38,443 bases of DNA from a virus, in IMG/VR virus record IMGVR_UViG_3300023192_004449, positions 1 to 38,443 of that record; one strand, given 5' to 3'. Shown piece after piece: positions 2,592 to 23,031 of the stretch; the stretch's first letter is position 1; each line of letters begins with the position of its first letter. Under the pieces are notes generated by a model. The model ran no database searches and was not told where the DNA came from. It was given only the letters and a program-made list of their open reading frames with translations. A program made the position numbers and the translations under genes.

Positions 2592-3833
2592 TTATTCTCC
2601 CAAACAGAGCCCATCAAAGATAGACCGAATTTGCTGGAAAACAACAGAAGAATTCACAGACGGGGAAAAGTACCTTGTTTGATTACTATCAATAATAGCC
2701 GCAAATGAAGTCCAGTGTTGTGTTAAGGCAAAGATATAAATATTAAAGAAATTATCCCTAGCTAATTCAAAGCAACTCATAGGGGTGCCGGCTGGGTCGT
2801 TATAGGTTTGTCCTTCTTCATCTGTCATTAAAATTATTACTTTTTGACTAATTTCCGAAAAAGTCAATCCCATTGTCCCATCCATTATATAAGCTAAAGC
2901 ATCATAAGAGGGCTCTCGACCGCTGCTGGGTATAATTCTACTTTCATTTAGAAATGATAGAAATTCGGCAGCCGGGACGAAGTCGGTCATCAATCTCATA
3001 TATTCAAAGTTAGAACCCGGACCAGCATCGCCAGGAGTGTTTTTTCTATCCCTGGTTCCTATAGCAACGAGTCCAAATCTGAAATTACTAGTAACAGGAT
3101 CAGACAACAAAGGGGTTATGCCTGCTATCATCGTCCCAATCTCATCATTAAAAGAGCCAGAAACATCTAACACAAAAACTATATCAACAGGAGATTCATC
3201 CATCCCTTCATCCACCAATCCATCACAATCATTATCTAGATTATCACATCGTTCAATTGTTGGTAATATTTGCCCCTCACATTCTCCAAATCCACCTTCT
3301 GAACAATATTGAACCCCTGCGCGACATTCTCCAACATGTAGAGTTTCGAGAGGTCCTTCATAACATACAATAGCTGTCTGATTCGGTATATTATCGTCTA
3401 TAGTTCCATTACAATCATTATCTAGATTATCGCAGAATTCTTCAGAGGGCCCAATATGTCCTTCACAATAAATGACACCATTTACACAAGTTGATATCCC
3501 AGGTTTACAAACACCGACTCCATAATTGATGCCTTCAATAAATCCGCAAAGTTGATTTTCTTCAGGATAAGATTCATCAACATGTAAATCACAATCATTG
3601 TCATATCCATCACAAATTTCTTCCGTTGGTCCAACAGCACCGTCACAATCAGACCATCCAGTGGCCATACATTTCTGAATCCCAAATTTGCACAGTCCAA
3701 CAGGTCGTCTAATACTCTCTGAATCCCAAGAACATTCGCGAGTTTGTCCAATTGGGCATTCATGATGAATTAGTTGAATATCTTCGCAACTTATAAGACC
3801 TATTCCGGATAAGAGGATGATTATTTTTCTCAT
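2592..3833 (-). CDS. Lipoprotein with three MopE-type motifs and a von Willebrand factor A domain
   Basis: A 413-aa predicted lipoprotein. The signal peptide ends in the lipobox LISC with the lipidated Cys at 16. Three Asp/Cys motifs of the MopE putative metal-binding type follow: DGYDNDCDLHVDE (75-87), DNLDNDCNGTIDD (135-147) and DNLDNDCDGLVDEG (197-210), each after a Cys-rich stretch. A vWFA domain starts near 216 with the MIDAS motif DVSGS (223-227). MopE-like repeats are frequent in surface proteins of Myxococcota and relatives, and vWFA domains bind ligands through a divalent cation. The start overlaps the upstream gene's stop (ATGA). A surface lipoprotein in a phage structural region is unexpected; a host-derived, infection-expressed adhesin or exclusion factor is possible (inference). 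Confidence 0.75.
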   Translation of the reverse strand: MRKIIILLSGIGLISCEDIQLIHHECPIGQTRECSWDSESIRRPVGLCKFGIQKCMATGWSDCDGAVGPTEEICDGYDNDCDLHVDESYPEENQLCGFIEGINYGVGVCKPGISTCVNGVIYCEGHIGPSEEFCDNLDNDCNGTIDDNIPNQTAIVCYEGPLETLHVGECRAGVQYCSEGGFGECEGQILPTIERCDNLDNDCDGLVDEGMDESPVDIVFVLDVSGSFNDEIGTMIAGITPLLSDPVTSNFRFGLVAIGTRDRKNTPGDAGPGSNFEYMRLMTDFVPAAEFLSFLNESRIIPSSGREPSYDALAYIMDGTMGLTFSEISQKVIILMTDEEGQTYNDPAGTPMSCFELARDNFFNIYIFALTQHWTSFAAIIDSNQTRYFSPSVNSSVVFQQIRSIFDGLCLGE

Positions 3834-4315
3834 TTCATGGCAGCCTCAACACACGCTGATTGTGTATCATAAATTACCATGGTGAGAACTGTGCTATTAA
3901 ATACTCTAAATCTAATTTGCCTAATTGGCAAATCTTTTATTTCATAAATTGCGGTAAGAATAATAGGCGGGGTAGAATCTGATTGTGTTGGAAGCTTAAA
4001 GGCTAATAATAAAGATAATCCGGGTCCATTTTGTATAATACCGGAGATATATCCATTTTCTATAACTTCAGGAATTCCTATTTGTGCAGAAGAGTTATCA
4101 CCAGGAAAGGTAGTAATTTCATTGCTTATATGAATAACCCATTTACACGTATTATTTTGCCCAGGGGTATAATAGGTGGTTCCAGAAGGAATTACTACAG
4201 GATAGTTCTCATTGGCTTTAATCTGCCAATAAAGAGAACAAACACTGGCGATTGCCAACACTCCAAGTAATATGGTACGCTTGAGACTTTTAAGGTTTTC
4301 TAAGAAGCTTGACAA
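3830..4315 (-). CDS. Membrane-anchored or secreted hypothetical protein
   Basis: A 161-aa protein starting at a TTG, chosen because GAGGAG lies 6 bases upstream on the minus strand and no better start is seen. Residues 14-31 (ILLGVLAIASVCSLYWQI) form one hydrophobic segment, either an N-terminal anchor or an uncleaved signal, so the remaining roughly 125 residues should be outside the cytoplasm. That part looks beta-rich, with Cys at about 57 and near the C-terminus. The family is not recognised. It is the middle gene of the three-gene minus-strand cassette, with 10 bases separating it from the gene before it and a 4-base overlap with the MopE-vWFA gene after it, so the three are probably co-transcribed. 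Confidence 0.6.
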   Translation of the reverse strand: MSSFLENLKSLKRTILLGVLAIASVCSLYWQIKANENYPVVIPSGTTYYTPGQNNTCKWVIHISNEITTFPGDNSSAQIGIPEVIENGYISGIIQNGPGLSLLLAFKLPTQSDSTPPIILTAIYEIKDLPIRQIRFRVFNSTVLTMVIYDTQSACVEAAMK

Positions 4316-4325
4316 AGAGCACTCC

Positions 4326-4580
4326 TCAAGGGAGTGGATCTATATCAAATACCTCTCCCTGCGGAGATAAAGTAATAAAAGGCATTTTCTTTATCTCTTT
4401 AATAAGTATCTCGTTCTCATGGCTTTTTGAATTCTTTTCTATCCAAAAAAGAATTTGTGTTTTTTCCTTGACCTGGCCAACATAGGACCACTTTCCTTCT
4501 ATTTTCTTCCAAATATTAGAAAAGTCAGTGCCTTGTCCTAAAATCATCAGGAGACCTGATAACATAATACTGCTAATCAT
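4326..4580 (-). CDS. Small secreted hypothetical protein
   Basis: An 84-aa protein, first of the minus-strand cassette. The N-terminus (MISSIMLSGLLMILGQG) is hydrophobic like a short signal peptide. The rest is Lys/Glu-rich with several Trp and aromatic residues, and no known domain is recognised. The ribosome binding site is weak (GAAGGGA about 12 bases before the ATG). Its TGA stop forms part of the GAGGAG that serves the next gene, which supports both being real and coupled. It shares the 82-base divergent intergenic region with the protease gene on the + strand. Confidence 0.5.
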   Translation of the reverse strand: MISSIMLSGLLMILGQGTDFSNIWKKIEGKWSYVGQVKEKTQILFWIEKNSKSHENEILIKEIKKMPFITLSPQGEVFDIDPLP

Positions 4581-4609
4581 TTTATTATTTCGTCCCTTCT
4601 GCGCAGTCT

Positions 4610-4639
4610 TTGTATAGACTTACTGAGGATAAATAGTAT
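4610..4639 (+). promoter_or_regulatory. Possible weak sigma70-type promoter for the protease gene
   Basis: TTGTAT (4610-4615), an 18-base spacer and TAGTAT (4634-4639) lie 23 bases before the ATG at 4663 in the divergent intergenic region. GATAAATA (4628-4635) in the same place resembles the T4-type late promoter TATAAATA recognised with gp55. Both matches are imperfect and such strings occur by chance in AT-rich DNA, so this is only a candidate. Confidence 0.25.
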
Positions 4640-4662
4640 CCTTTCAGTCTAGTTACTAAGCT

Positions 4663-5553
4663 ATGAAGAAAAAAACACCTTTTTACTTAAAGTTTCTTAT
4701 AGTTTGGTTATTTTGTTTGACAAGTTGTACTAGTGGGTGTACCACAATCAATATAAATTCAGGGCAAGAAAAAGAAATCTTACCGAGAAGAGCCTTCGCC
4801 CAAATACAACAATCAATAAAACTTGAAGGATGCGGACAGGATCCTAAGACGAAAAAAAGTAAATGTCAGAAGGCAGTTATGAGATATGTTTCCTCTGGCG
4901 CATATGTTTTTCACAGTGAGATAGCCCAAAATATTTCTTATGTTTTGACTGCTGGTCATTCTTGCGAGAGCAATATTCCGGAAGTTCAAAATATAAATGG
5001 ATATAAGGTTATAAAAAAAGGATCAACATTTAAGGTAGTTGATTTAGACGGGACAGAACATTTAGCAACTGTTGTTGATATAAACAAGCAATTTGATCTT
5101 TGTCTCATGCAGGTATCTGATGTTTTCAATAATCCTACTACTCTCAAAGTAGCTAAAAAAGAACCGCTTCGTGGGGAAATTGTAACTAATATGGCTGCAC
5201 CGCATGGATTATTCTGGCCTGGAACTGTTCTAATCTTCAAGGGGACATTCTCGGGGTATCATGACCGAGGATATTCCGTTTATACTATACCAACAAAGCC
5301 AGGATCTAGCGGATCGCCCATTATAAATGATAAGAATGAACTTATAGGAGTCATATTTGCTGGATATCCTGTAATAGAAAATGTAGGGTTATCTTCACCC
5401 TTAGTCGCTATCAAAGTATTTTTAAAGAAATCAGTTGCAAAAGGCGAAATGATTTTATGGGAAAAAATAAGCAAACTAAAAACTAATACAAAGGTTGATA
5501 GGATATGGATTATAGAAATGAAAACAAAGATGGATCAAGTTTTCGGTCAATAA
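4663..5553 (+). CDS. Trypsin-like serine protease lipoprotein
   Basis: A 296-aa protein with a lysine-rich start, a hydrophobic stretch and lipobox LTSC (Cys22), predicting export and lipid anchoring. The catalytic triad of a chymotrypsin-fold protease is visible: His99 in LTAGHSC, Asp145 in FDLCLMQV and Ser216 in KPGSSGSPI (usual form GNSGGP). The sequence around them (TNMAAPHG, LIGVIFAG) fits the DegP/trypsin group, but no PDZ domain follows; the last 50 residues are basic and unrecognised. Established knowledge: these enzymes cut peptide bonds in extracytoplasmic proteins. It is divergent from the minus-strand cassette and 30 bases before a virion-type gene. It may process surface proteins or alter the host envelope (inference). 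Confidence 0.8.
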   Translation: MKKKTPFYLKFLIVWLFCLTSCTSGCTTININSGQEKEILPRRAFAQIQQSIKLEGCGQDPKTKKSKCQKAVMRYVSSGAYVFHSEIAQNISYVLTAGHSCESNIPEVQNINGYKVIKKGSTFKVVDLDGTEHLATVVDINKQFDLCLMQVSDVFNNPTTLKVAKKEPLRGEIVTNMAAPHGLFWPGTVLIFKGTFSGYHDRGYSVYTIPTKPGSSGSPIINDKNELIGVIFAGYPVIENVGLSSPLVAIKVFLKKSVAKGEMILWEKISKLKTNTKVDRIWIIEMKTKMDQVFGQ

Positions 5554-11542: not shown

Positions 11543-11866
11543 GGGGGTAACCGGCATTGATTGATAGGGAAATAGAAAAGGTGCAAGGGTGAGGGAAGCG
11601 TGGCTCACTAAAAACGCTTAACAACATAATCGCAAATGACGATTTTAAAATGGAGATGGCGGCTTAAAAAGCTGACCCCTCTTGAGGCGGTGGCAGCCAA
11701 TAAACAGAAAGCCGCATTGTGTGTCTTGAGTGCTTTTGATTGTTTTAGCCGCAATAAAACGATCTAGTCAAGTGGTCTGTCCGACGAAAAAAACAGTTCT
11801 AACCTTGTGAATGACCTTTTTATGGAACTAGACAAGACGGGAGTTCAATTCTCCCTACCTCCACCA
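11543..11866 (+). ncRNA. ssrA: Transfer-messenger RNA (tmRNA), phage-encoded
   Basis: The RNA is 324 nt. The 5' GGGGGTA (11543-11549) pairs with TACCTCC (11856-11862) across all seven acceptor positions with one G-U wobble, followed by A and an encoded CCA. The T arm is GGGAG-TTCAATT-CTCCC (11839-11855). A long P2 helix is visible as AAAAGGT near 11576 against ACCTTTTT near 11814. Pseudoknot PK1 is clear: GTGAG (11589-11593) with CTCAC (11604-11608), interlocked with AAGCG (11596-11600) and CGCTT (11615-11619). Twelve bases later the tag frame starts. tmRNA with SmpB frees ribosomes stalled on broken mRNA and adds a degradation tag. No smpB gene is seen here, so it would use the host protein. 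It has its own promoter and terminator. Confidence 0.95.
11632..11667 (+). other. tmRNA proteolysis-tag reading frame
   Basis: Resume codon GCA at 11632, then a frame coding ANDDFKMEMAA and TAA. The context TAATCGCAAATGACGA closely follows the E. coli TAGTCGCAAACGACGA. The AND start is typical of bacterial tags. The end is MAA rather than the usual LAA recognised by ClpXP, and the middle is FKMEM instead of ENYAL. Confidence 0.92.
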
Positions 11867-14790: not shown

Positions 14791-16041
14791 TTGACACAAA
14801 AAATTAAGATCATGACGATTAGTGATCACCCTTTATTACCTTCAGGTGTGGGCACACAAACCAAATACATGATTGAGGCCCTTATAAGCACCGGCAAATT
14901 TGAAGTATTCTCACTCGGCGGAGCCGTAAAACATCCCAACTACGACTTGATGAACCAACATGAGAATTGGAAAATCCTACCAGTAGATGGTTATGGGAAA
15001 AAGGATCAAATCTTAACTCTCATCCAGCAAATAAAGCCGGATATGCTTTGGTTTATGACAGATCCAAGGTATTATGAATGGCTTTGGGCCTTTGAAGAAG
15101 ATATCCGACAATATATTCCAATGATTTATTATCATGTTTGGGATAATTACCCTTTCCCTATGTTCAATAAAAGATATTATGACTCAAATGATGTTGTAGT
15201 TACAATATCAAAGGTTACTAGTAATATCGTTCAAAATGTTTCCCCGGATGTCCATGAAATTTATTTGCCTCATGCTGTTCCTATGAACATCTTTCGCAAG
15301 TTAAACGGCACAGAAAAAAATCAATTATTCCAAAATAACCCAAACTTGATGAATAAATTCATATTTTTCTGGAATAATAGAAACGCAAGAAGAAAACAAA
15401 GCGGCACTCTAGTAATGTGGTTCGCTGATTTTTTGAAACAAGAGCATATAGACAAAAATAAAACATGCTTGATTATGCACACTAATCCAGACGATACTCA
15501 CGGACAACCGTTAGAATATTTAGCAGAGAGCTATGGACTCACAAAAGGCGAGATCATCTTTTCCAAAAAGGGACTGCCAACCGAAGACTTAGCAAAACTG
15601 TATGGTGTAGCAGATTGTACTATCAATATATCAGACGCCGAAGGATTTGGCTTATCAACTTTGGAATCTCTTTCAAGCGAAACCCCAATTATTGTAACCA
15701 TGACCGGCGGATTACAAGAACAAGTGACAGACGGCGAGAACTGGTTTGGCGTTGGCATTGAACCAGCCTCTAAAGCTCTCATCGGTTCTCAACAAGTCCC
15801 ATATATCTTTGAGGACCGGATTTCAAAGGAATCTTTCATTGCAGCGCTTAATCAAATCTACGCTATGACTGATAAAGAACGAGAAGATATCGGCAGGCAA
15901 GGCCGTGAACACGTCATGAAGAGATATAACTTTGATGACTACGGTTCATCTTGGGTTAAGCTGCTTGAAGAAGTTCACGAGAAGTATGGCTCCTGGGAAA
16001 ATCGCAAGAACTATCAAGCTTGGAAATTCGAGGAAATATGA
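14791..16041 (+). CDS. Glycosyltransferase, GT-B fold (GT4-like), first of five
   Basis: 416 aa from TTG with GGAGAGG 3-9 bases upstream. The N-terminus MTISDHPLLPSGVGTQTKYM has the Gly-rich acceptor-side loop of GT-B enzymes. The C-terminal half carries the donor-side E-x7-E motif in EGFGLSTLESLSSETPIIVT, followed by the GGLQEQVTDG segment typical of GT4 retaining transferases. These transfer a sugar from a nucleotide-sugar to an acceptor in the cytoplasm. There is no signal or membrane segment. It begins a run of five transferases (14791-20088) and overlaps the next gene by ATGA. The acceptor is unknown: phage DNA, virion protein or host surface glycan are all possible. Confidence 0.8.
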   Translation: MTQKIKIMTISDHPLLPSGVGTQTKYMIEALISTGKFEVFSLGGAVKHPNYDLMNQHENWKILPVDGYGKKDQILTLIQQIKPDMLWFMTDPRYYEWLWAFEEDIRQYIPMIYYHVWDNYPFPMFNKRYYDSNDVVVTISKVTSNIVQNVSPDVHEIYLPHAVPMNIFRKLNGTEKNQLFQNNPNLMNKFIFFWNNRNARRKQSGTLVMWFADFLKQEHIDKNKTCLIMHTNPDDTHGQPLEYLAESYGLTKGEIIFSKKGLPTEDLAKLYGVADCTINISDAEGFGLSTLESLSSETPIIVTMTGGLQEQVTDGENWFGVGIEPASKALIGSQQVPYIFEDRISKESFIAALNQIYAMTDKEREDIGRQGREHVMKRYNFDDYGSSWVKLLEEVHEKYGSWENRKNYQAWKFEEI

Positions 16042-17312
16042 CGAAACAAAAGAAAATATTAATCATGGGCTCCTTCTGCAACATAAGCGGATACAGCGAC
16101 CATGCACGCCTAGTAGCAGACGCCTTCCTTGATAGCAATGAAAACCATATGATACATCTTATAGATCTTCAGTGGGCTGATTCTACTCGCAACTTAGAAT
16201 ATACCAGCAAATATAAGTCTCTCATAGAGAATACTCAGCATTATCTCAAATTTCTGAAGTCTACTGGCACTTCTATGGCTGCTGGCTTTGACTGCTGTTT
16301 TCAAGTGCGACCGCCTAACGAATGGCATCAAGTTACCAACTATGATGTGGGGGTGACGGCGGCTTTGGAAACGGTGGCTGCCCCTGAAGAGTGGATTGCC
16401 AACTGTAATCTAGTTCACAGGATTCTTGTAGTTTCAGAACATGCTAAGAAGAACCTTTTGGCTGCTGTTCATAGCGAGACTAAAGAAAAAATTAGAACTC
16501 CTATTGACGTCATCCCTTTCTACGATAACCTGCCCCTTGAGAGAGAAAAATTTTCCGGCTACAACGAGATGACAACTGATACTAATTTCTTATGTGTGTC
16601 TCAAATTGCCCCTCGTAAGAATTTATTCAAGATGTTAGAATATTTCGTTACTGAATTTAGTGATGAAGAAAATGTGGGTCTCGTCTTGAAGACTTATATC
16701 AGAAACAATAGTAGTATTGATTTTTTCATGGTAAAAGATCATATAATTAAGTTTCTAAACCATGTGAATCTCAATAGAAAGTGTAAGGTATATATTCTCC
16801 ACGGGAATCTATCTCAAAGTGAAATGAATTCCTTATACGACAATGAGGTCATCACTGGTTATATATCTGTGACTCATGGAGAAGGCTTCGGAATCCCAAT
16901 CTTTAATGCTGTTTGTTCGGATATCCCGGTGGTGGCCCCTTCATGGTCTGGTCATATGGATTTTCTTAGCGCACCTGTAAAAAACGAAGTTAGCGGGAAA
17001 GTAACAACTAAGAATTTGTTTCTAAAAACAAGTTATGATATAAAAACCGTGAATCAAGAACATTTGATGCCAGGACTTATAACAGAAGGTTGTAAGTGGT
17101 GTTATCCTCATGAAAAATCCTTTAGAAAAAATCTTAGATCTTTGGTAACCTCTCCTTCCTTCCATAAGAAAAATGCTGTGATATTGGGAGAACATATTCG
17201 TCAGAAGTTTACTAGGGAAAGCGTAAATCAAATGTATTATAAAGTATTAGATGAAATAGGGGGTCTTGATGCTTCGGGAAAAGCCGACAACGCACAAATA
17301 CTTGAGTTGTGA
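16038..17312 (+). CDS. Glycosyltransferase, GT-B fold (GT4-like), second of five
   Basis: 424 aa. The ATG at 16038 overlaps the preceding TGA and follows GAGGAA; the frame is also open from an ATG at 16020, which would add six residues inside the previous gene. The N-terminus ILIMGSFCNISGYSDHARLV is a GT-B acceptor-side Rossmann start. The donor domain shows SQIAPRKN and THGEGFGIPIFNAVCSDIPV. Here the second Glu of the usual E-x7-E is replaced by Asn, so catalysis or donor choice may differ from the first enzyme. PSWSGHMDFL fits the donor-binding region. It is co-transcribed in the five-gene cluster, with a 44-base overlap into the next gene. Confidence 0.75.
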   Translation: MTKQKKILIMGSFCNISGYSDHARLVADAFLDSNENHMIHLIDLQWADSTRNLEYTSKYKSLIENTQHYLKFLKSTGTSMAAGFDCCFQVRPPNEWHQVTNYDVGVTAALETVAAPEEWIANCNLVHRILVVSEHAKKNLLAAVHSETKEKIRTPIDVIPFYDNLPLEREKFSGYNEMTTDTNFLCVSQIAPRKNLFKMLEYFVTEFSDEENVGLVLKTYIRNNSSIDFFMVKDHIIKFLNHVNLNRKCKVYILHGNLSQSEMNSLYDNEVITGYISVTHGEGFGIPIFNAVCSDIPVVAPSWSGHMDFLSAPVKNEVSGKVTTKNLFLKTSYDIKTVNQEHLMPGLITEGCKWCYPHEKSFRKNLRSLVTSPSFHKKNAVILGEHIRQKFTRESVNQMYYKVLDEIGGLDASGKADNAQILEL

Positions 17313-18495
17313 TATTTTCTCTCAACACGAGACTCTAACAAGAGAACAAATATTACAGAACAATACTTTAGATTTAAAATTTACCCAGGGTGAAATGTCT
17401 ATAGACCTATCTCAGGTGATTAGATATCCAAGGCTAGGAGAGTATCTCCAGATTCTTGAGTCAAGTGTAGTGGGCAACTTTCCATTCATTTGTCAAAATA
17501 TGAGTTATACCACAAAAATTCATAATATAAAGCTAATAAATCCACAAAATCCAGGTCTTCTGTTACCGATCAAAGATTCAATTGAATTACTTGAATTTAC
17601 ATTGTCCAATCTATGCGACTCTAAAGTAAATGAGGTAGCAAATATTACGATTATTGATGATAGATCAGAAGATCCTAAGTCTATTAAAGAATTGGCTGAT
17701 AAACATGGTGTGATTTATATCAGGGTTGATTATCCTTCAGAGATTTTCAATTTTTCTATGCTCAATAATATTGGTGCCTTCTTATATCATAAATTAGATC
17801 ATGAAGATATTATTTTATGGAACGCTGATTTATGGACACCCGATAAAAAAACTGTTCCTACCCTTCTAAAGAGATATAAAAAACTCAAAAAAACGGGCAC
17901 TAAATTAGCCGGAACCAAACTGCTCTATCCTACTGATGACTTTTGTTATCTGGTAGACGGAGATAGAACCATAAAAGAGCTTTCAAAAGACTTCTCAATA
18001 TCAATAGAAAATTTGAAGGAAATAAACCCGCTAGGAAAGATTCAATACGGCGGAGGATCTTTTGTAGTAACTACAGAATTTTTAAAACAAATTACTCATG
18101 TGTTTATGTCTCCGGTACATTATGGAAGATTTTCCGACAAAGAAAACACTATAGTCAATATTGACAGGGAAACAAGGTTTGTAACGGGAGCATTTCAAAT
18201 TATTGATCTTCCAACTTTTATAGAGATTGGTGGCTTTTGTCCTTCTTTATCTTGTAGCCATCAGGACGCAGATCTTTGTTTAAGAATGACCAAACGCGGC
18301 GATAAGGTCCAATATATCGGGAAAGATGTATTTTTATATCATGCAGAATCTTTAATCATTTCCTCTAAACTAGAGAAGAATGGAGTTTCTTTGAAACACG
18401 CCCACAGCGGAACGAGAAATAAACTGATTTCAGATGAAATAATATATTCTTTATTGTGGAATTATTATTTCTTCACAGGACAATTACCTTTATAA
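17269..18495 (+). CDS. Glycosyltransferase, GT-A fold (GT2-like), third of five
   Basis: About 408 aa. ATG at 17269 (or TTG at 17266) lies within the end of the previous gene, with GGGGGT just upstream. An N-terminal region of about 90 residues is not recognised. From residue 97 the GT2 fold is clear: LLPIKDSIELLEFTLSNL, NITIIDDRSED (Asp130/131), FNFSMLNNIGA, and ILWNADLW where GT2 enzymes have their metal-binding DxD. Later comes GGFCPSLSCSHQDADLCLRM, the 'ED-x-D-L-x-x-R'-type catalytic segment of polymer-forming or rhamnosyl-type GT2 enzymes. No membrane segment is seen, so it is soluble. It is one base from the next gene. Confidence 0.75.
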   Translation: MLREKPTTHKYLSCDIFSQHETLTREQILQNNTLDLKFTQGEMSIDLSQVIRYPRLGEYLQILESSVVGNFPFICQNMSYTTKIHNIKLINPQNPGLLLPIKDSIELLEFTLSNLCDSKVNEVANITIIDDRSEDPKSIKELADKHGVIYIRVDYPSEIFNFSMLNNIGAFLYHKLDHEDIILWNADLWTPDKKTVPTLLKRYKKLKKTGTKLAGTKLLYPTDDFCYLVDGDRTIKELSKDFSISIENLKEINPLGKIQYGGGSFVVTTEFLKQITHVFMSPVHYGRFSDKENTIVNIDRETRFVTGAFQIIDLPTFIEIGGFCPSLSCSHQDADLCLRMTKRGDKVQYIGKDVFLYHAESLIISSKLEKNGVSLKHAHSGTRNKLISDEIIYSLLWNYYFFTGQLPL

Positions 18496-18496
18496 T

Positions 18497-19378
18497 ATGA
18501 AAAAGATATTATTAGGACAAAACCATTTACACACTCTGGGCGGCAGTGAAACATTCATTTATACTATGGCTCAGGAGCTAACTCGTCTAGGGCATCAAGT
18601 AGATATAGTAACCCATCAAGAGGGAATTATATCCGAACTCATTCACCGGCAATTTGGCTGCAACATAAATAAGATTTCAAATTCTTATGATTTTGCTTTG
18701 ATAAATCACACCACAGTAGTTACTGGTGTAAAAAACATGTTCCCTGGTAGCAATATAATACAGACTTGCCACGGAATATATCCAGCACTTGAACAACCTG
18801 TGCCAGGAGTAAAACATGTTTCTATTTCAAAAGAGGTTCATAGCTACTTGTCCGCCAAAGGTTTTAAATCCACGTTAATTCATAACGGAATTAATTGTGA
18901 AGTATTCAGCCCAGGCAAAAAACCATCCCCAAAAATAAGAAGAATGTTCAGCTTATCTCAATCTGATCAGTTCAATCAGATGCTAATAGAGGTTGGCAGT
19001 GAACTTGATATAACGGTTGAGTATAACAATAAATTCACCTCACCACGAGTTGACATCCAAAATATTATAAAAACCACCGATCTGGTAGTTAGCCTAGGGC
19101 GAGGCGCTTATGAAGGAATGGCGTGCGGAAAGCCTGTTCTAATTGCCGACAAGAGAGATTATCAGCCTGGTTTAATGGATGGCATTATCACATCTAATAA
19201 CATTGACCAGTTTTTGCAAAATAACTGCTCAGGAAGAAAAACCCGTGTTCCTGTCACCAAGGAGAATTTGCTGGCAGAAATAAAAAAGTATGATCATACC
19301 CAAGGGCAAAAAAATAGAGAATATGCCTTAGAGAACTTAAATATTCAAAAACAAGTACAGGAATATCTAAAGCTATGA
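18497..19378 (+). CDS. Glycosyltransferase, GT-B fold, compact, fourth of five
   Basis: 293 aa, shorter than typical GT4 enzymes of 350-400 aa. The N-terminus GGSETFIYTMAQELTRLGHQ is a textbook GT4 acceptor-side loop and helix, followed by VDIVTHQEG and VKHVSISKEV. The donor side has VSLGRGAYEGMACGKPVLIA, in which the usual first Glu of E-x7-E is Gly/Arg but the second (YEGMACGKP) is kept. The linker and first donor-domain strands seem shortened rather than frameshifted, since the frame is continuous. It begins one base after the previous stop and overlaps the next gene by four bases (ATGA), so it belongs to the same operon. Acceptor unknown. Confidence 0.7.
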   Translation: MKKILLGQNHLHTLGGSETFIYTMAQELTRLGHQVDIVTHQEGIISELIHRQFGCNINKISNSYDFALINHTTVVTGVKNMFPGSNIIQTCHGIYPALEQPVPGVKHVSISKEVHSYLSAKGFKSTLIHNGINCEVFSPGKKPSPKIRRMFSLSQSDQFNQMLIEVGSELDITVEYNNKFTSPRVDIQNIIKTTDLVVSLGRGAYEGMACGKPVLIADKRDYQPGLMDGIITSNNIDQFLQNNCSGRKTRVPVTKENLLAEIKKYDHTQGQKNREYALENLNIQKQVQEYLKL

Positions 19379-20088
19379 AACTTGTTGGCCTAACCAGGGT
19401 TCGTAACGAATCAGAAATCATACAAGAAACTTTAGACCATATGGCGGAGTTCTGCTCTCAGGTTTTTATTTACGATGATTGCTCTGAAGATAATACAGTT
19501 GAGATATGTAGGGCTCACCCAATTGTATCTTCTGTAATTGAAGGGCAAAGTTGGGACTCTTTCCGTGCCAAGGCGGAATTCCAAAACAGACACGCAGTTT
19601 ATTTAGAGGCTGCAAAACACCTATCAGAGAATGATTGGTTTGTTTATTTGGATGCTGATGAAAGAATTGAGTTTGATTGGACAAAACTAAGTAACAATTT
19701 AGACGCTGTAAGAATGAGATTATTTGATTTCTATATTACAGAAGCAGACGTCCATAAAAAATACACAGATAGAAAATGGATCGGCCCAGAATATCGCCAG
19801 ATCTTATTTGCTTTCAGATTTGGAGCAACAACCGGATATTATGGTTTAGATCAGAGAGAATGTTCTATAAAATCATTTAGAATTTTAGATGAAGGTTATG
19901 TTCGTCATTATGGTAAATCTATTTCTGTTGAACAGTGGGAAGAGACTTGTGATTACTACATAAATCACTTTCCCATGTATGCCGCTAAGTGGCTCGCAAG
20001 AAAAGGAAATGCTATCCATTCACACTCAGATTTTGGCAGAGATTTAATTTTATGGGAAGATAAAGTTAAAAAAGGTTTGCCTTTGTAA
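19375..20088 (+). CDS. Glycosyltransferase family 2-like protein, fifth of five
   Basis: 237 aa. The N-terminus MKLVGLTRVRNESEIIQETL matches the GT2 branch whose members begin with a 'RNE' nucleotide-binding loop. FIYDDCSEDNT (Asp34/35) and WFVYLDADERIEF (DxD at 93-95) are the donor and metal sites. The C-terminal part (RHYGKSISVEQWEE) is typical of short GT2 proteins found in lipopolysaccharide and tail-glycosylation clusters. It is soluble, with no membrane segment. It overlaps the preceding gene by ATGA and is separated by 30 bases from the small genes leading to gp55. It closes the glycosyltransferase cluster. Confidence 0.8.
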   Translation: MKLVGLTRVRNESEIIQETLDHMAEFCSQVFIYDDCSEDNTVEICRAHPIVSSVIEGQSWDSFRAKAEFQNRHAVYLEAAKHLSENDWFVYLDADERIEFDWTKLSNNLDAVRMRLFDFYITEADVHKKYTDRKWIGPEYRQILFAFRFGATTGYYGLDQRECSIKSFRILDEGYVRHYGKSISVEQWEETCDYYINHFPMYAAKWLARKGNAIHSHSDFGRDLILWEDKVKKGLPL

Positions 20089-21858: not shown

Positions 21859-23031
21859 ATGACCAAAGAGATTGTTGAAAAACATGTCCGCAAGTCTGTT
21901 GATTTAAGTCAATCTGATTGGCGACCCTCTGACGGCGTTGCTGGTCTTATAAGGCAGACTTCGGCTGCTCATATAACCAAAAAAGGTGCTCTAAAAAATA
22001 ATTCTTTAGTTACGGCGCGAGTATTGGATTCTGGCGATAGAATCCCTCGGTGGTGGGAACGGGTATCTACCTATATTGGTAAAATGTTTAGTTTAGGAGC
22101 AGACGACGCCAAAAACCTAAAAATATATAAATGTAGAGTAGAACAGGACTCAAGATGTTATGGGGTCCCTGAACCCACGAGTGCGGAGGATAACGTTATT
22201 TTTGAGTTACCACAAATGGTATTTGAATCAGAAATCGCTGAATCACTCGGCCCAGGTAATATAGTTCAAGTTAGAATAACCAATGCAAACACATGTTTTG
22301 TTGATGATATTGCAGGATCTATAGTTAAATTAATAGACAGTACATCAAATTTTAATAACTTATCTTCTAATTGTACAAGACCAGTGCCTGGTGCAGGCGG
22401 CAAAACAAATACCCTTTCTGGCTGTACAGTTTCCAGAAGAAGCAAAAGTACAGCAAAGCGCGTTTCTATCCCTCGTTCTACTTCTGGCAAAGGTAAATCA
22501 CCACTAGGACCAATAACCGCGAGCCCAACAGTAAGCTCAACCGATGTTGGAATTATAACGTCCGGATTTGGTTGGCGAAATCCTCCTCCCGGCGGATCTG
22601 CCGACCACACAGGAATTGATATTCGTGTTCCTGTTGGTACTGCCGTATATGCTGTTTTAGACGGAGAGGTAATATATGCTGTACAATCTGGAAACCCAGA
22701 TCGCGAAGGCGCAGGGTATTATGCAGTAATAAAACATACGGTATATGAAGCCCATACTCCCAATAGTGAATTCTACACATTATATGCACATTTAGAAAAA
22801 GAGTCCGTTATAACACAAAATAGATTTTTCGGCACCGGTACTAGGGTAAAGGCGGGTACACAAATAGCCACATCTGGAGAGTCCGGTGCAGGCGGTCCTC
22901 ATTTACATTTTGGTATTATATATGATAGTGACCCAGGATGGACAACCGGGGGGCAGGTTTCACAATATGGAGCAAAATCTAATCCAATGACGGATTTCTT
23001 TACAAACAAATTCGTAAAGAAGAAAAAATAA
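21859..23031 (+). CDS. Baseplate hub protein with M23 peptidoglycan endopeptidase
   Basis: 390 aa. The N-terminal 165 residues (NSLVTARVLDSGD, KIYKCRVEQDSR, GNIVQVRITN) fit an OB-fold like that opening T4 gp5-type hub proteins. A Ser/Pro-rich linker follows (170-228). Residues 229-355 are an M23 peptidase: GFGWR, zinc ligands H250 and D254 (ADHTGID), catalytic H311 (TLYAHLE) and HLH at 348-350. M23 enzymes cut peptide cross-links in peptidoglycan. T4 gp5 carries a lysozyme instead, so this phage appears to breach the wall with an endopeptidase. It is one base from the spike-like gene. No signal peptide is seen, as expected for a virion enzyme. Confidence 0.85.
   Translation: MTKEIVEKHVRKSVDLSQSDWRPSDGVAGLIRQTSAAHITKKGALKNNSLVTARVLDSGDRIPRWWERVSTYIGKMFSLGADDAKNLKIYKCRVEQDSRCYGVPEPTSAEDNVIFELPQMVFESEIAESLGPGNIVQVRITNANTCFVDDIAGSIVKLIDSTSNFNNLSSNCTRPVPGAGGKTNTLSGCTVSRRSKSTAKRVSIPRSTSGKGKSPLGPITASPTVSSTDVGIITSGFGWRNPPPGGSADHTGIDIRVPVGTAVYAVLDGEVIYAVQSGNPDREGAGYYAVIKHTVYEAHTPNSEFYTLYAHLEKESVITQNRFFGTGTRVKAGTQIATSGESGAGGPHLHFGIIYDSDPGWTTGGQVSQYGAKSNPMTDFFTNKFVKKKK

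What the first reader, a model, noticed from the sequence alone, without database searches (positions are those of the whole stretch)
2592..5553. Secreted-protein island inside phage structural genes: MopE-vWFA lipoprotein, two exported proteins and a trypsin-like lipoprotein
Three minus-strand genes and one divergent gene break an otherwise + strand block. All four have signal, lipobox or membrane sequences, which phage structural genes lack. MopE motifs and vWFA domains are typical of Myxococcota-type surface proteins. Inference: an infection-expressed cell-surface system, perhaps superinfection exclusion, adhesion between cells, or surface proteolysis, captured from the host. I know of no described phage system with this combination.
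Basis: partly seen in the sequence, partly recalled or inferred. Interest (0 to 1): 0.78.

Follow-up and report, generated by a model that had tools for sequence, protein, structure and literature searches.

The report
Late phage cassette of exported proteins
A group of uncultured T4-like phages carries a conserved block of four genes for exported proteins, including a protein-cutting enzyme and a binding protein that both appear to be anchored by lipid, and the block probably acts on the infected cell's outer layers late in infection, in a way not described before.

Summary
In detail: four intact genes for exported proteins (MopE-VWA lipoprotein, membrane-anchored beta-domain protein, small exported protein, divergent trypsin-like lipoprotein) lie at 2592-5553. 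They form a conserved cassette: 47 distinct copies in four unrelated gene neighbourhoods, always the same order and orientation, under purifying selection, with invariant catalytic triad and MIDAS residues. The phages are T4-like. In a search by a flanking gene, every close relative with enough flanking sequence has the cassette; more distant ones lack it.

New here: (1) both transcription units have, at fixed positions, a CTANTTA motif like the ACTATTTA that precedes this group's sheath, tube, hub and head-tail adaptor genes, which suggests late expression and argues against ordinary (early) superinfection exclusion. (2) VWA and trypsin-like lipoproteins are neighbours in at least three other arrangements in other viral contigs, once as an overlapping pair, so they are probably partners. 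(3) Cassette-bearing genomes also encode a compact RseP-like site-2 protease (7 of 8 contigs over 120 kb; 0 of 16 cassette-free).

Capture from the host is not supported: limited searches of about 85,000 bacterial and archaeal genomes found nothing. Best reading: a late module for targeted proteolysis of the host envelope, most likely aiding release. The function is inferred, not shown.

The parts
2592..3833 (-). vwa: MopE-VWA lipoprotein, 413 aa. Lipobox Cys16; MopE-type motifs at about aa 74-87, 134-147 and 196-210; VWA domain aa 217-386 with MIDAS D223/S225/S227 and D338
3830..4315 (-). tm161: single N-terminal transmembrane helix followed by a beta-rich globular domain on the far side of the membrane; invariant Cys57 and Cys155; overlaps vwa by 4 nt
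   Evidence: AlphaFold2 mean pLDDT 91; no significant fold match
4326..4580 (-). s84: small exported protein, about 65 aa after the signal; conserved W..GxW and KxPF motifs
   Evidence: model of low confidence
4663..5553 (+). tryp: trypsin-like lipoprotein protease, 296 aa, divergent from s84; lipobox Cys22; triad H99/D145/S216; HtrA/DegP-like and Spl-like by sequence, no PDZ domain found
4620..4637 (+). conserved intergenic core TTACTnnGGATAAwTAGT, not found elsewhere in the loci then held
4630..4636 (-). late-promoter-like motif (A)CTATTTA reading towards s84-tm161-vwa, 56 nt upstream of the annotated s84 start
4649..4655 (+). late-promoter-like variant CTAGTTA(C) reading towards tryp, 14 nt upstream of its ATG

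Best explanation
Shown (about 0.95 certain): this is a conserved, self-contained four-gene cassette of a clade of T4-like phages, encoding only exported proteins. Proposed mechanism (the confidence given is for this part): late in infection, together with the virion genes, the phage makes an envelope proteolysis module. The MopE-VWA lipoprotein uses its MIDAS site to capture a target peptide or protein in the outer envelope; the trypsin-like lipoprotein, anchored in the same compartment, cleaves it. tm161, anchored in the inner membrane and translationally coupled to vwa, and the small exported s84 hold or regulate the complex, so that with vwa it may bridge the two membranes as a spanin pair does. 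The result is breakage or shaving of outer-envelope proteins that helps virions leave the cell, and may also destroy receptors on the debris. Inferred steps: actual localisation, the VWA-protease contact, the substrate, and the effect on release.
For: All four proteins carry export or anchor signals, and the four genes stay together across 47 distinct cassettes. Triad and MIDAS residues are invariant, so catalysis and metal-dependent binding are probably kept. dN/dS is 0.03-0.23. The group's motif ACTATTTA is enriched about 7- to 13-fold in intergenic DNA and stands before sheath, tube, baseplate hub and head-tail adaptor genes; CTANTTA variants stand in the s84 direction in 42 of 46 cassettes and a related [CA]TANTTA before tryp in 41 of 46, including non-alignable neighbourhoods. 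VWA and trypsin-like lipoproteins are adjacent in other arrangements: overlapping tryp-vwa pair (L234, L277), side by side in L038 and in L063. 7 of 7 cassette-free VWA-MopE contigs over 120 kb carry a Trypsin_2 gene, all with a lipobox-like signal on inspection. The tm161-vwa pair resembles the inner-membrane protein plus outer-membrane lipoprotein plan with overlapping genes of two-component spanins (PMC9636201). In G018 no small o-spanin-like lipoprotein was found and in G009 one weak candidate; Phage_lysozyme and Amidase_2 were found in 0 of 7 cassette-bearing contigs.
Against: No expression data; the cassette's promoter-like sites score lower than the sites used to build the matrix (about 8-11 against 11-18 bits) and most have p of about 0.01-0.09 on their own. 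The cassette is not known to be next to a holin or endolysin. tm161 and vwa are globular and larger than known spanins, with no coiled coil. Other endolysin families were not searched, and a metallo-endopeptidase gene is present in the window (21859-23031). No substrate is known, and outer- versus inner-membrane sorting of the lipoproteins in the unknown host cannot be predicted.
Confidence: 0.4

Rival explanations
1. Superinfection exclusion or receptor inactivation: the lipoproteins bind and cleave the phage receptor, or incoming tail proteins, at the surface of the infected cell, as T5 Llp blocks FhuA.
For: Phage lipoproteins that block receptors are a known kind (PMC9586334). The VWA domain is a binding module. 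vwa and tm161 diverge more than the flanking g1098 and g264 genes in some pairs (W/L002: 59% against 79-82%). Late expression would still protect progeny from receptor-bearing debris.
Against: Exclusion proteins are usually made early; the motifs here are of the late type. Known examples are single small proteins, not a two-unit set of four. dN/dS gives no sign of an arms race in vwa (0.05-0.13).
Confidence: 0.2
2. A regulated proteolysis cascade: tryp acts as a DegS-like site-1 protease, the phage RseP-like M50 enzyme as the site-2 protease, and a single-pass protein (tm161, the companion F10 protein or a host anti-sigma factor) as substrate, so that the phage senses or controls envelope stress or lysis timing.
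For: M50 is present in 7 of 8 cassette-bearing contigs over 120 kb and in 0 of 16 cassette-free ones (Fisher p about 2e-5 if treated as independent, which they are not). In G018 tryp, F10 and M50 overlap in one apparent operon; in L152/L158 M50 flanks the cassette. tryp matches HtrA/DegP best.
Against: In the window's own type (G009) M50 lies about 75 kb away. Cassette-free phages keep the trypsin lipoprotein without M50. No PDZ domain was found in tryp. tm161 has only about 12 cytoplasmic residues. Co-occurrence may only reflect shared descent.
Confidence: 0.2
3. Surface or host-interaction system that keeps the infected cell alive or attached, for example protection from predators or adhesion between cells, derived from MopE-VWA surface proteins of the host.
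For: A MopE relative is found in Myxococcota (plasmid hit in Sandaracinus). A related phage carries another MopE lipoprotein (G018 573-2618).
Against: No bacterial homologue was found in genome scans. Late-type motifs suggest action near the end of the cycle.
Confidence: 0.08
4. Virion or virion-assembly components that happen to carry signal-like N-termini.
For: Late-type motifs; position between fibre-like genes in the window's neighbourhood.
Against: Two lipoproteins, an anchored protein and disulfide-suggesting invariant cysteines point to the periplasm. In neighbourhood B the cassette lies among replication and metabolism genes. Tailed-phage virions are assembled in the cytoplasm (general knowledge).
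Confidence: 0.05

Closest known systems
Two-component spanins (lambda Rz/Rz1, T4 PseT.3/PseT.2)
   Same: Inner-membrane-anchored protein plus lipoprotein encoded by overlapping genes; likely late timing.
   Different: tm161 is a beta-rich globular domain and vwa a 413-aa MopE-VWA protein; no coiled coil; two further genes, one a protease; not in a recognised lysis gene cluster.
Superinfection-exclusion lipoproteins (T5 Llp, Cor)
   Same: Phage-encoded lipoproteins acting at the host envelope.
   Different: Those are small single proteins, Llp made early; here a conserved four-gene set with a protease and late-type motifs.
HtrA/DegP/DegS serine proteases and RseP site-2 protease (sigma-E pathway)
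   Same: Trypsin-like sequence closest to HtrA/DegP and Spl proteases; an RseP-like M50 enzyme is encoded by the same phages.
   Different: tryp is a lipoprotein with no PDZ domain found; the M50 protein is a compact 267 aa; no anti-sigma substrate identified.
MopE-related and VWA surface proteins of Myxococcota
   Same: MopE motifs and VWA domain in an exported protein.
   Different: No bacterial protein with this arrangement was found; the cassette is specific to a phage clade.
vWA-MoxR ternary conflict systems with trypsin-like domains (eLife 2020, PMC7159879)
   Same: A peptide-binding VWA protein, with a trypsin domain associated in some systems.
   Different: Those are built around a MoxR AAA+ ATPase; here all four proteins are exported and there is no ATPase.

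Membership tests
Two-component spanin | Inner-membrane protein with N-terminal transmembrane helix and periplasmic domain (i-spanin) | tested here: met
   tm161: helix 2-37 then beta domain; topology inferred
Two-component spanin | Lipoprotein partner, in a nested, overlapping or adjacent gene | tested here: met
   vwa lipobox and 4-nt overlap with tm161; outer-membrane sorting not tested
Two-component spanin | Coiled-coil i-spanin periplasmic domain and small o-spanin | tested here: not met
   tm161 model is beta-rich; vwa is 413 aa with MopE and VWA domains
Two-component spanin | Complements an Rz/Rz1 defect in lysis | not testable with these tools
   needs an experiment
Superinfection-exclusion lipoprotein | Lipoprotein signal in a phage protein | tested here: met
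Superinfection-exclusion lipoprotein | Early expression | tested here: inconclusive
   late-type motifs argue against it; no expression data
Superinfection-exclusion lipoprotein | Blocks adsorption or injection | not testable with these tools
   needs an experiment
HtrA (S1C) protease | Trypsin-like domain with His-Asp-Ser triad | tested here: met
   PF13365 E 4e-14; triad invariant
HtrA (S1C) protease | C-terminal PDZ domain or curated HtrA score | tested here: not met
   no PDZ hit; NCBIfam DegP score 24 against a cut-off of 416
MopE-VWA protein | MopE motifs above the Pfam cut-off | tested here: met
   39.1 bits against a cut-off of 27; 23 of 23 relatives match at E up to 0.01
MopE-VWA protein | VWA domain with intact MIDAS | tested here: met
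   PF00092 in 23 of 23 at E up to 0.01, though the window copy alone is below the Pfam cut-off; D223/S225/S227/D338 invariant
T4-like phage (carrier) | Gp23-type major capsid protein | tested here: met
   in all 5 cassette-bearing contigs over 170 kb; the window itself does not reach that gene but has gp25 and baseplate-wedge genes
vWA-MoxR conflict system | MoxR AAA+ ATPase partner | tested here: not met
   none in the cassette or among the flanking genes looked at

The most novel reading that the evidence does not exclude
A previously undescribed kind of phage machine: a lipid-anchored VWA receptor and trypsin-like protease pair, expanded in one clade with an inner-membrane beta-domain protein, a small exported protein and an RseP-like intramembrane protease, that carries out targeted proteolysis of the host envelope late in infection and takes over, or adds to, the job of spanins.
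Probability: 0.3. Interest if true: 0.82.

Novelty: new variant of a known kind. Interest (0 to 1): 0.62.

Why it matters
Two of the four protein families (tm161, s84) match nothing in Pfam, PHROGs, NCBIfam or PADLOC, and the tm161 model has no significant fold match, yet all four stay linked across very diverged phages. If the proposed role is right, it would show that phages can use a dedicated protease-adaptor pair on the host envelope for exit, a step for which only spanins and disruptins are well described. It gives testable genes for how large uncultured T4-like phages leave, or control, their hosts.

Tried and rejected
Classic T4 late promoter TATAAATA: absent from intergenic upstream regions of G009 and G018. 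DnaA-box reading of the intergenic core (TGTGGATAA in some members): not conserved, the window has TGAGGATAA. Defence system: PADLOC gives only weak protease-domain hits to tryp. Isolate phages: no hit for vwa or tm161, and for tryp only a 'degQ' in two Acinetobacter phage-bin records that look like bacterial DNA. GenBank phage hits to the M50 protein also look like bacterial contamination, for example in the same Acinetobacter set. Bacterial relatives: two genome-contig scans empty; search by phylum was not possible because no bacterial centre genome was available. PDB profile match of vwa to a designer PPR protein is treated as spurious. s84 model too poor for a fold search. Host identification failed. 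The ascertainment bias of finding cassettes with cassette proteins was checked by searching with the flanking g1098 gene.

Full report
Observation. The window is a 38,443-base virus record. Four intact ORFs lie at 2592-5553: three on the minus strand that abut or overlap (vwa, tm161, s84) and one divergent (tryp). vwa has a lipobox, three MopE motifs (PF11617 39.1 bits, cut-off 27) and a VWA domain; tryp has a lipobox and a Trypsin_2 domain. A strict lipobox scan of the window returns exactly these two. tm161 has one N-terminal helix and a confidently modelled beta-rich domain (mean pLDDT 91) without significant fold relatives. s84 has an N-terminal signal and a poorly modelled small domain.

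Conservation. Scans of IMG/VR with vwa, tm161 and tryp and profile searches give 47 distinct cassettes after removing duplicates. Every contig in which tryp or tm161 was found and which is long enough has all four genes in the order vwa, tm161, s84 on one strand and tryp divergent, down to about 30% identity; more distant VWA-MopE proteins of other viral contigs lack the cassette. One copy has tryp split into two frames (L115/L175). Catalytic and MIDAS residues are invariant. dN/dS among close pairs is 0.03-0.23. Because these contigs were found with cassette proteins, I repeated the search with the flanking gene g1098. All contigs with at least 54% identity in that gene and enough flanking sequence carry the four genes, as do three at 47-48%; L229 at 48% and the lower ones do not within the flanks held, and tm161 is absent from 23 of them searched in full (same query positive). 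The cassette is therefore a trait of one clade.

Carrier. All five cassette-bearing contigs over 170 kb have a Gp23-type capsid protein, and the window has gp25 and baseplate-wedge genes: T4-like myoviruses. No isolate relative was found for vwa or tm161. The cassette sits in four neighbourhoods: fibre-like/DnaJ-like genes (the window), GroES and ribonucleotide reductase on one side with an M50 protease on the other, methylase and fibre-like genes, and DnaJ/M50. It therefore moves, or is kept, as a unit.

Timing. In two near-complete genomes the T4 late promoter is absent from intergenic upstream regions, but ACTATTTA is enriched in intergenic DNA (CTATTTA in G009: 13 in 15.6 kb against 21 in 175 kb genic; in G018: 13 in 10.7 kb against 17 in 164 kb) and stands before sheath, tube, baseplate hub and head-tail adaptor genes. 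For comparison, T4 uses TATAAATA and cyanophages NATAAATA (PMC2984593). In the cassette, CTANTTA stands upstream of s84 in 42 of 46 copies and a related [CA]TANTTA stands 12-18 nt upstream of tryp in 41 of 46. Single-site scores are modest, so late expression is a supported inference, not a result.

Partners. VWA and trypsin-like lipoproteins occur together beyond this clade. L234 and L277 have a trypsin lipoprotein overlapping a VWA lipoprotein by 4 nt. L038 and L063 have the two side by side. Seven of seven cassette-free VWA-MopE contigs over 120 kb carry a Trypsin_2 gene, each with a lipobox-like signal. This makes the pair the likely functional core, with tm161 and s84 as later additions.

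M50. Cassette-bearing contigs over 120 kb have a compact RseP-like M50 protease in 7 of 8 cases, cassette-free ones in 0 of 16. In G018 tryp, a coiled-coil membrane protein and M50 overlap in one apparent operon. This supports a proteolytic cascade as a rival or as part of the same system, though shared descent could explain it.

Mechanism. I propose late, targeted proteolysis of the outer envelope to aid release: VWA captures, trypsin cuts, tm161 anchors to the inner membrane. Shown: gene content, conservation, intact active-site residues, linkage, motif positions. Inferred: location, contacts, substrate, outcome. Exclusion is less likely because such proteins are usually early (PMC9586334). 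Capture from the host is not supported by two genome scans, which can miss distant relatives.

Novelty. None of the papers found in the library describes the combination. It resembles spanins in plan (PMC9636201) but fails their defining coiled-coil and size features, so it is not filed as one.

Noticed in passing
window 11543-11866: Phage-encoded tmRNA with tag peptide ANDDFKMEMAA.
   Followed up: partly
L176-L194 (G009, G018), window 6800 and 21552: A T4-like phage group in which ACTATTTA, not TATAAATA, precedes virion genes: an unusual late-promoter-like motif.
   Followed up: partly
G009 186403-187206 (L185); G018 48206-49006 (L188): Compact RseP-like M50 site-2 protease with an overlapping upstream single-pass coiled-coil protein, limited to cassette-bearing phages among those tested.
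   Followed up: partly
G018 573-2618 (L186): A 681-aa lipoprotein with a MopE motif, weak propeller-type hits and a DAGTDVRDVGTDAG stretch.
   Followed up: no
L196, L199, L200, L201, L202, L229, L241: Trypsin-like lipoprotein next to and divergent from the PIN-PhoH gene in phages without the cassette.
   Followed up: partly
window 14791-20088: Cluster of glycosyltransferase genes.
   Followed up: no
G009 and G018, several places (e.g. G018 53150-54560, G009 187337-190017): Many short paralogues starting MKITKxQLRxIIKEE.
   Followed up: no
L115/L175: tryp split into two frames in one contig, either a real break or an assembly error.
   Followed up: no
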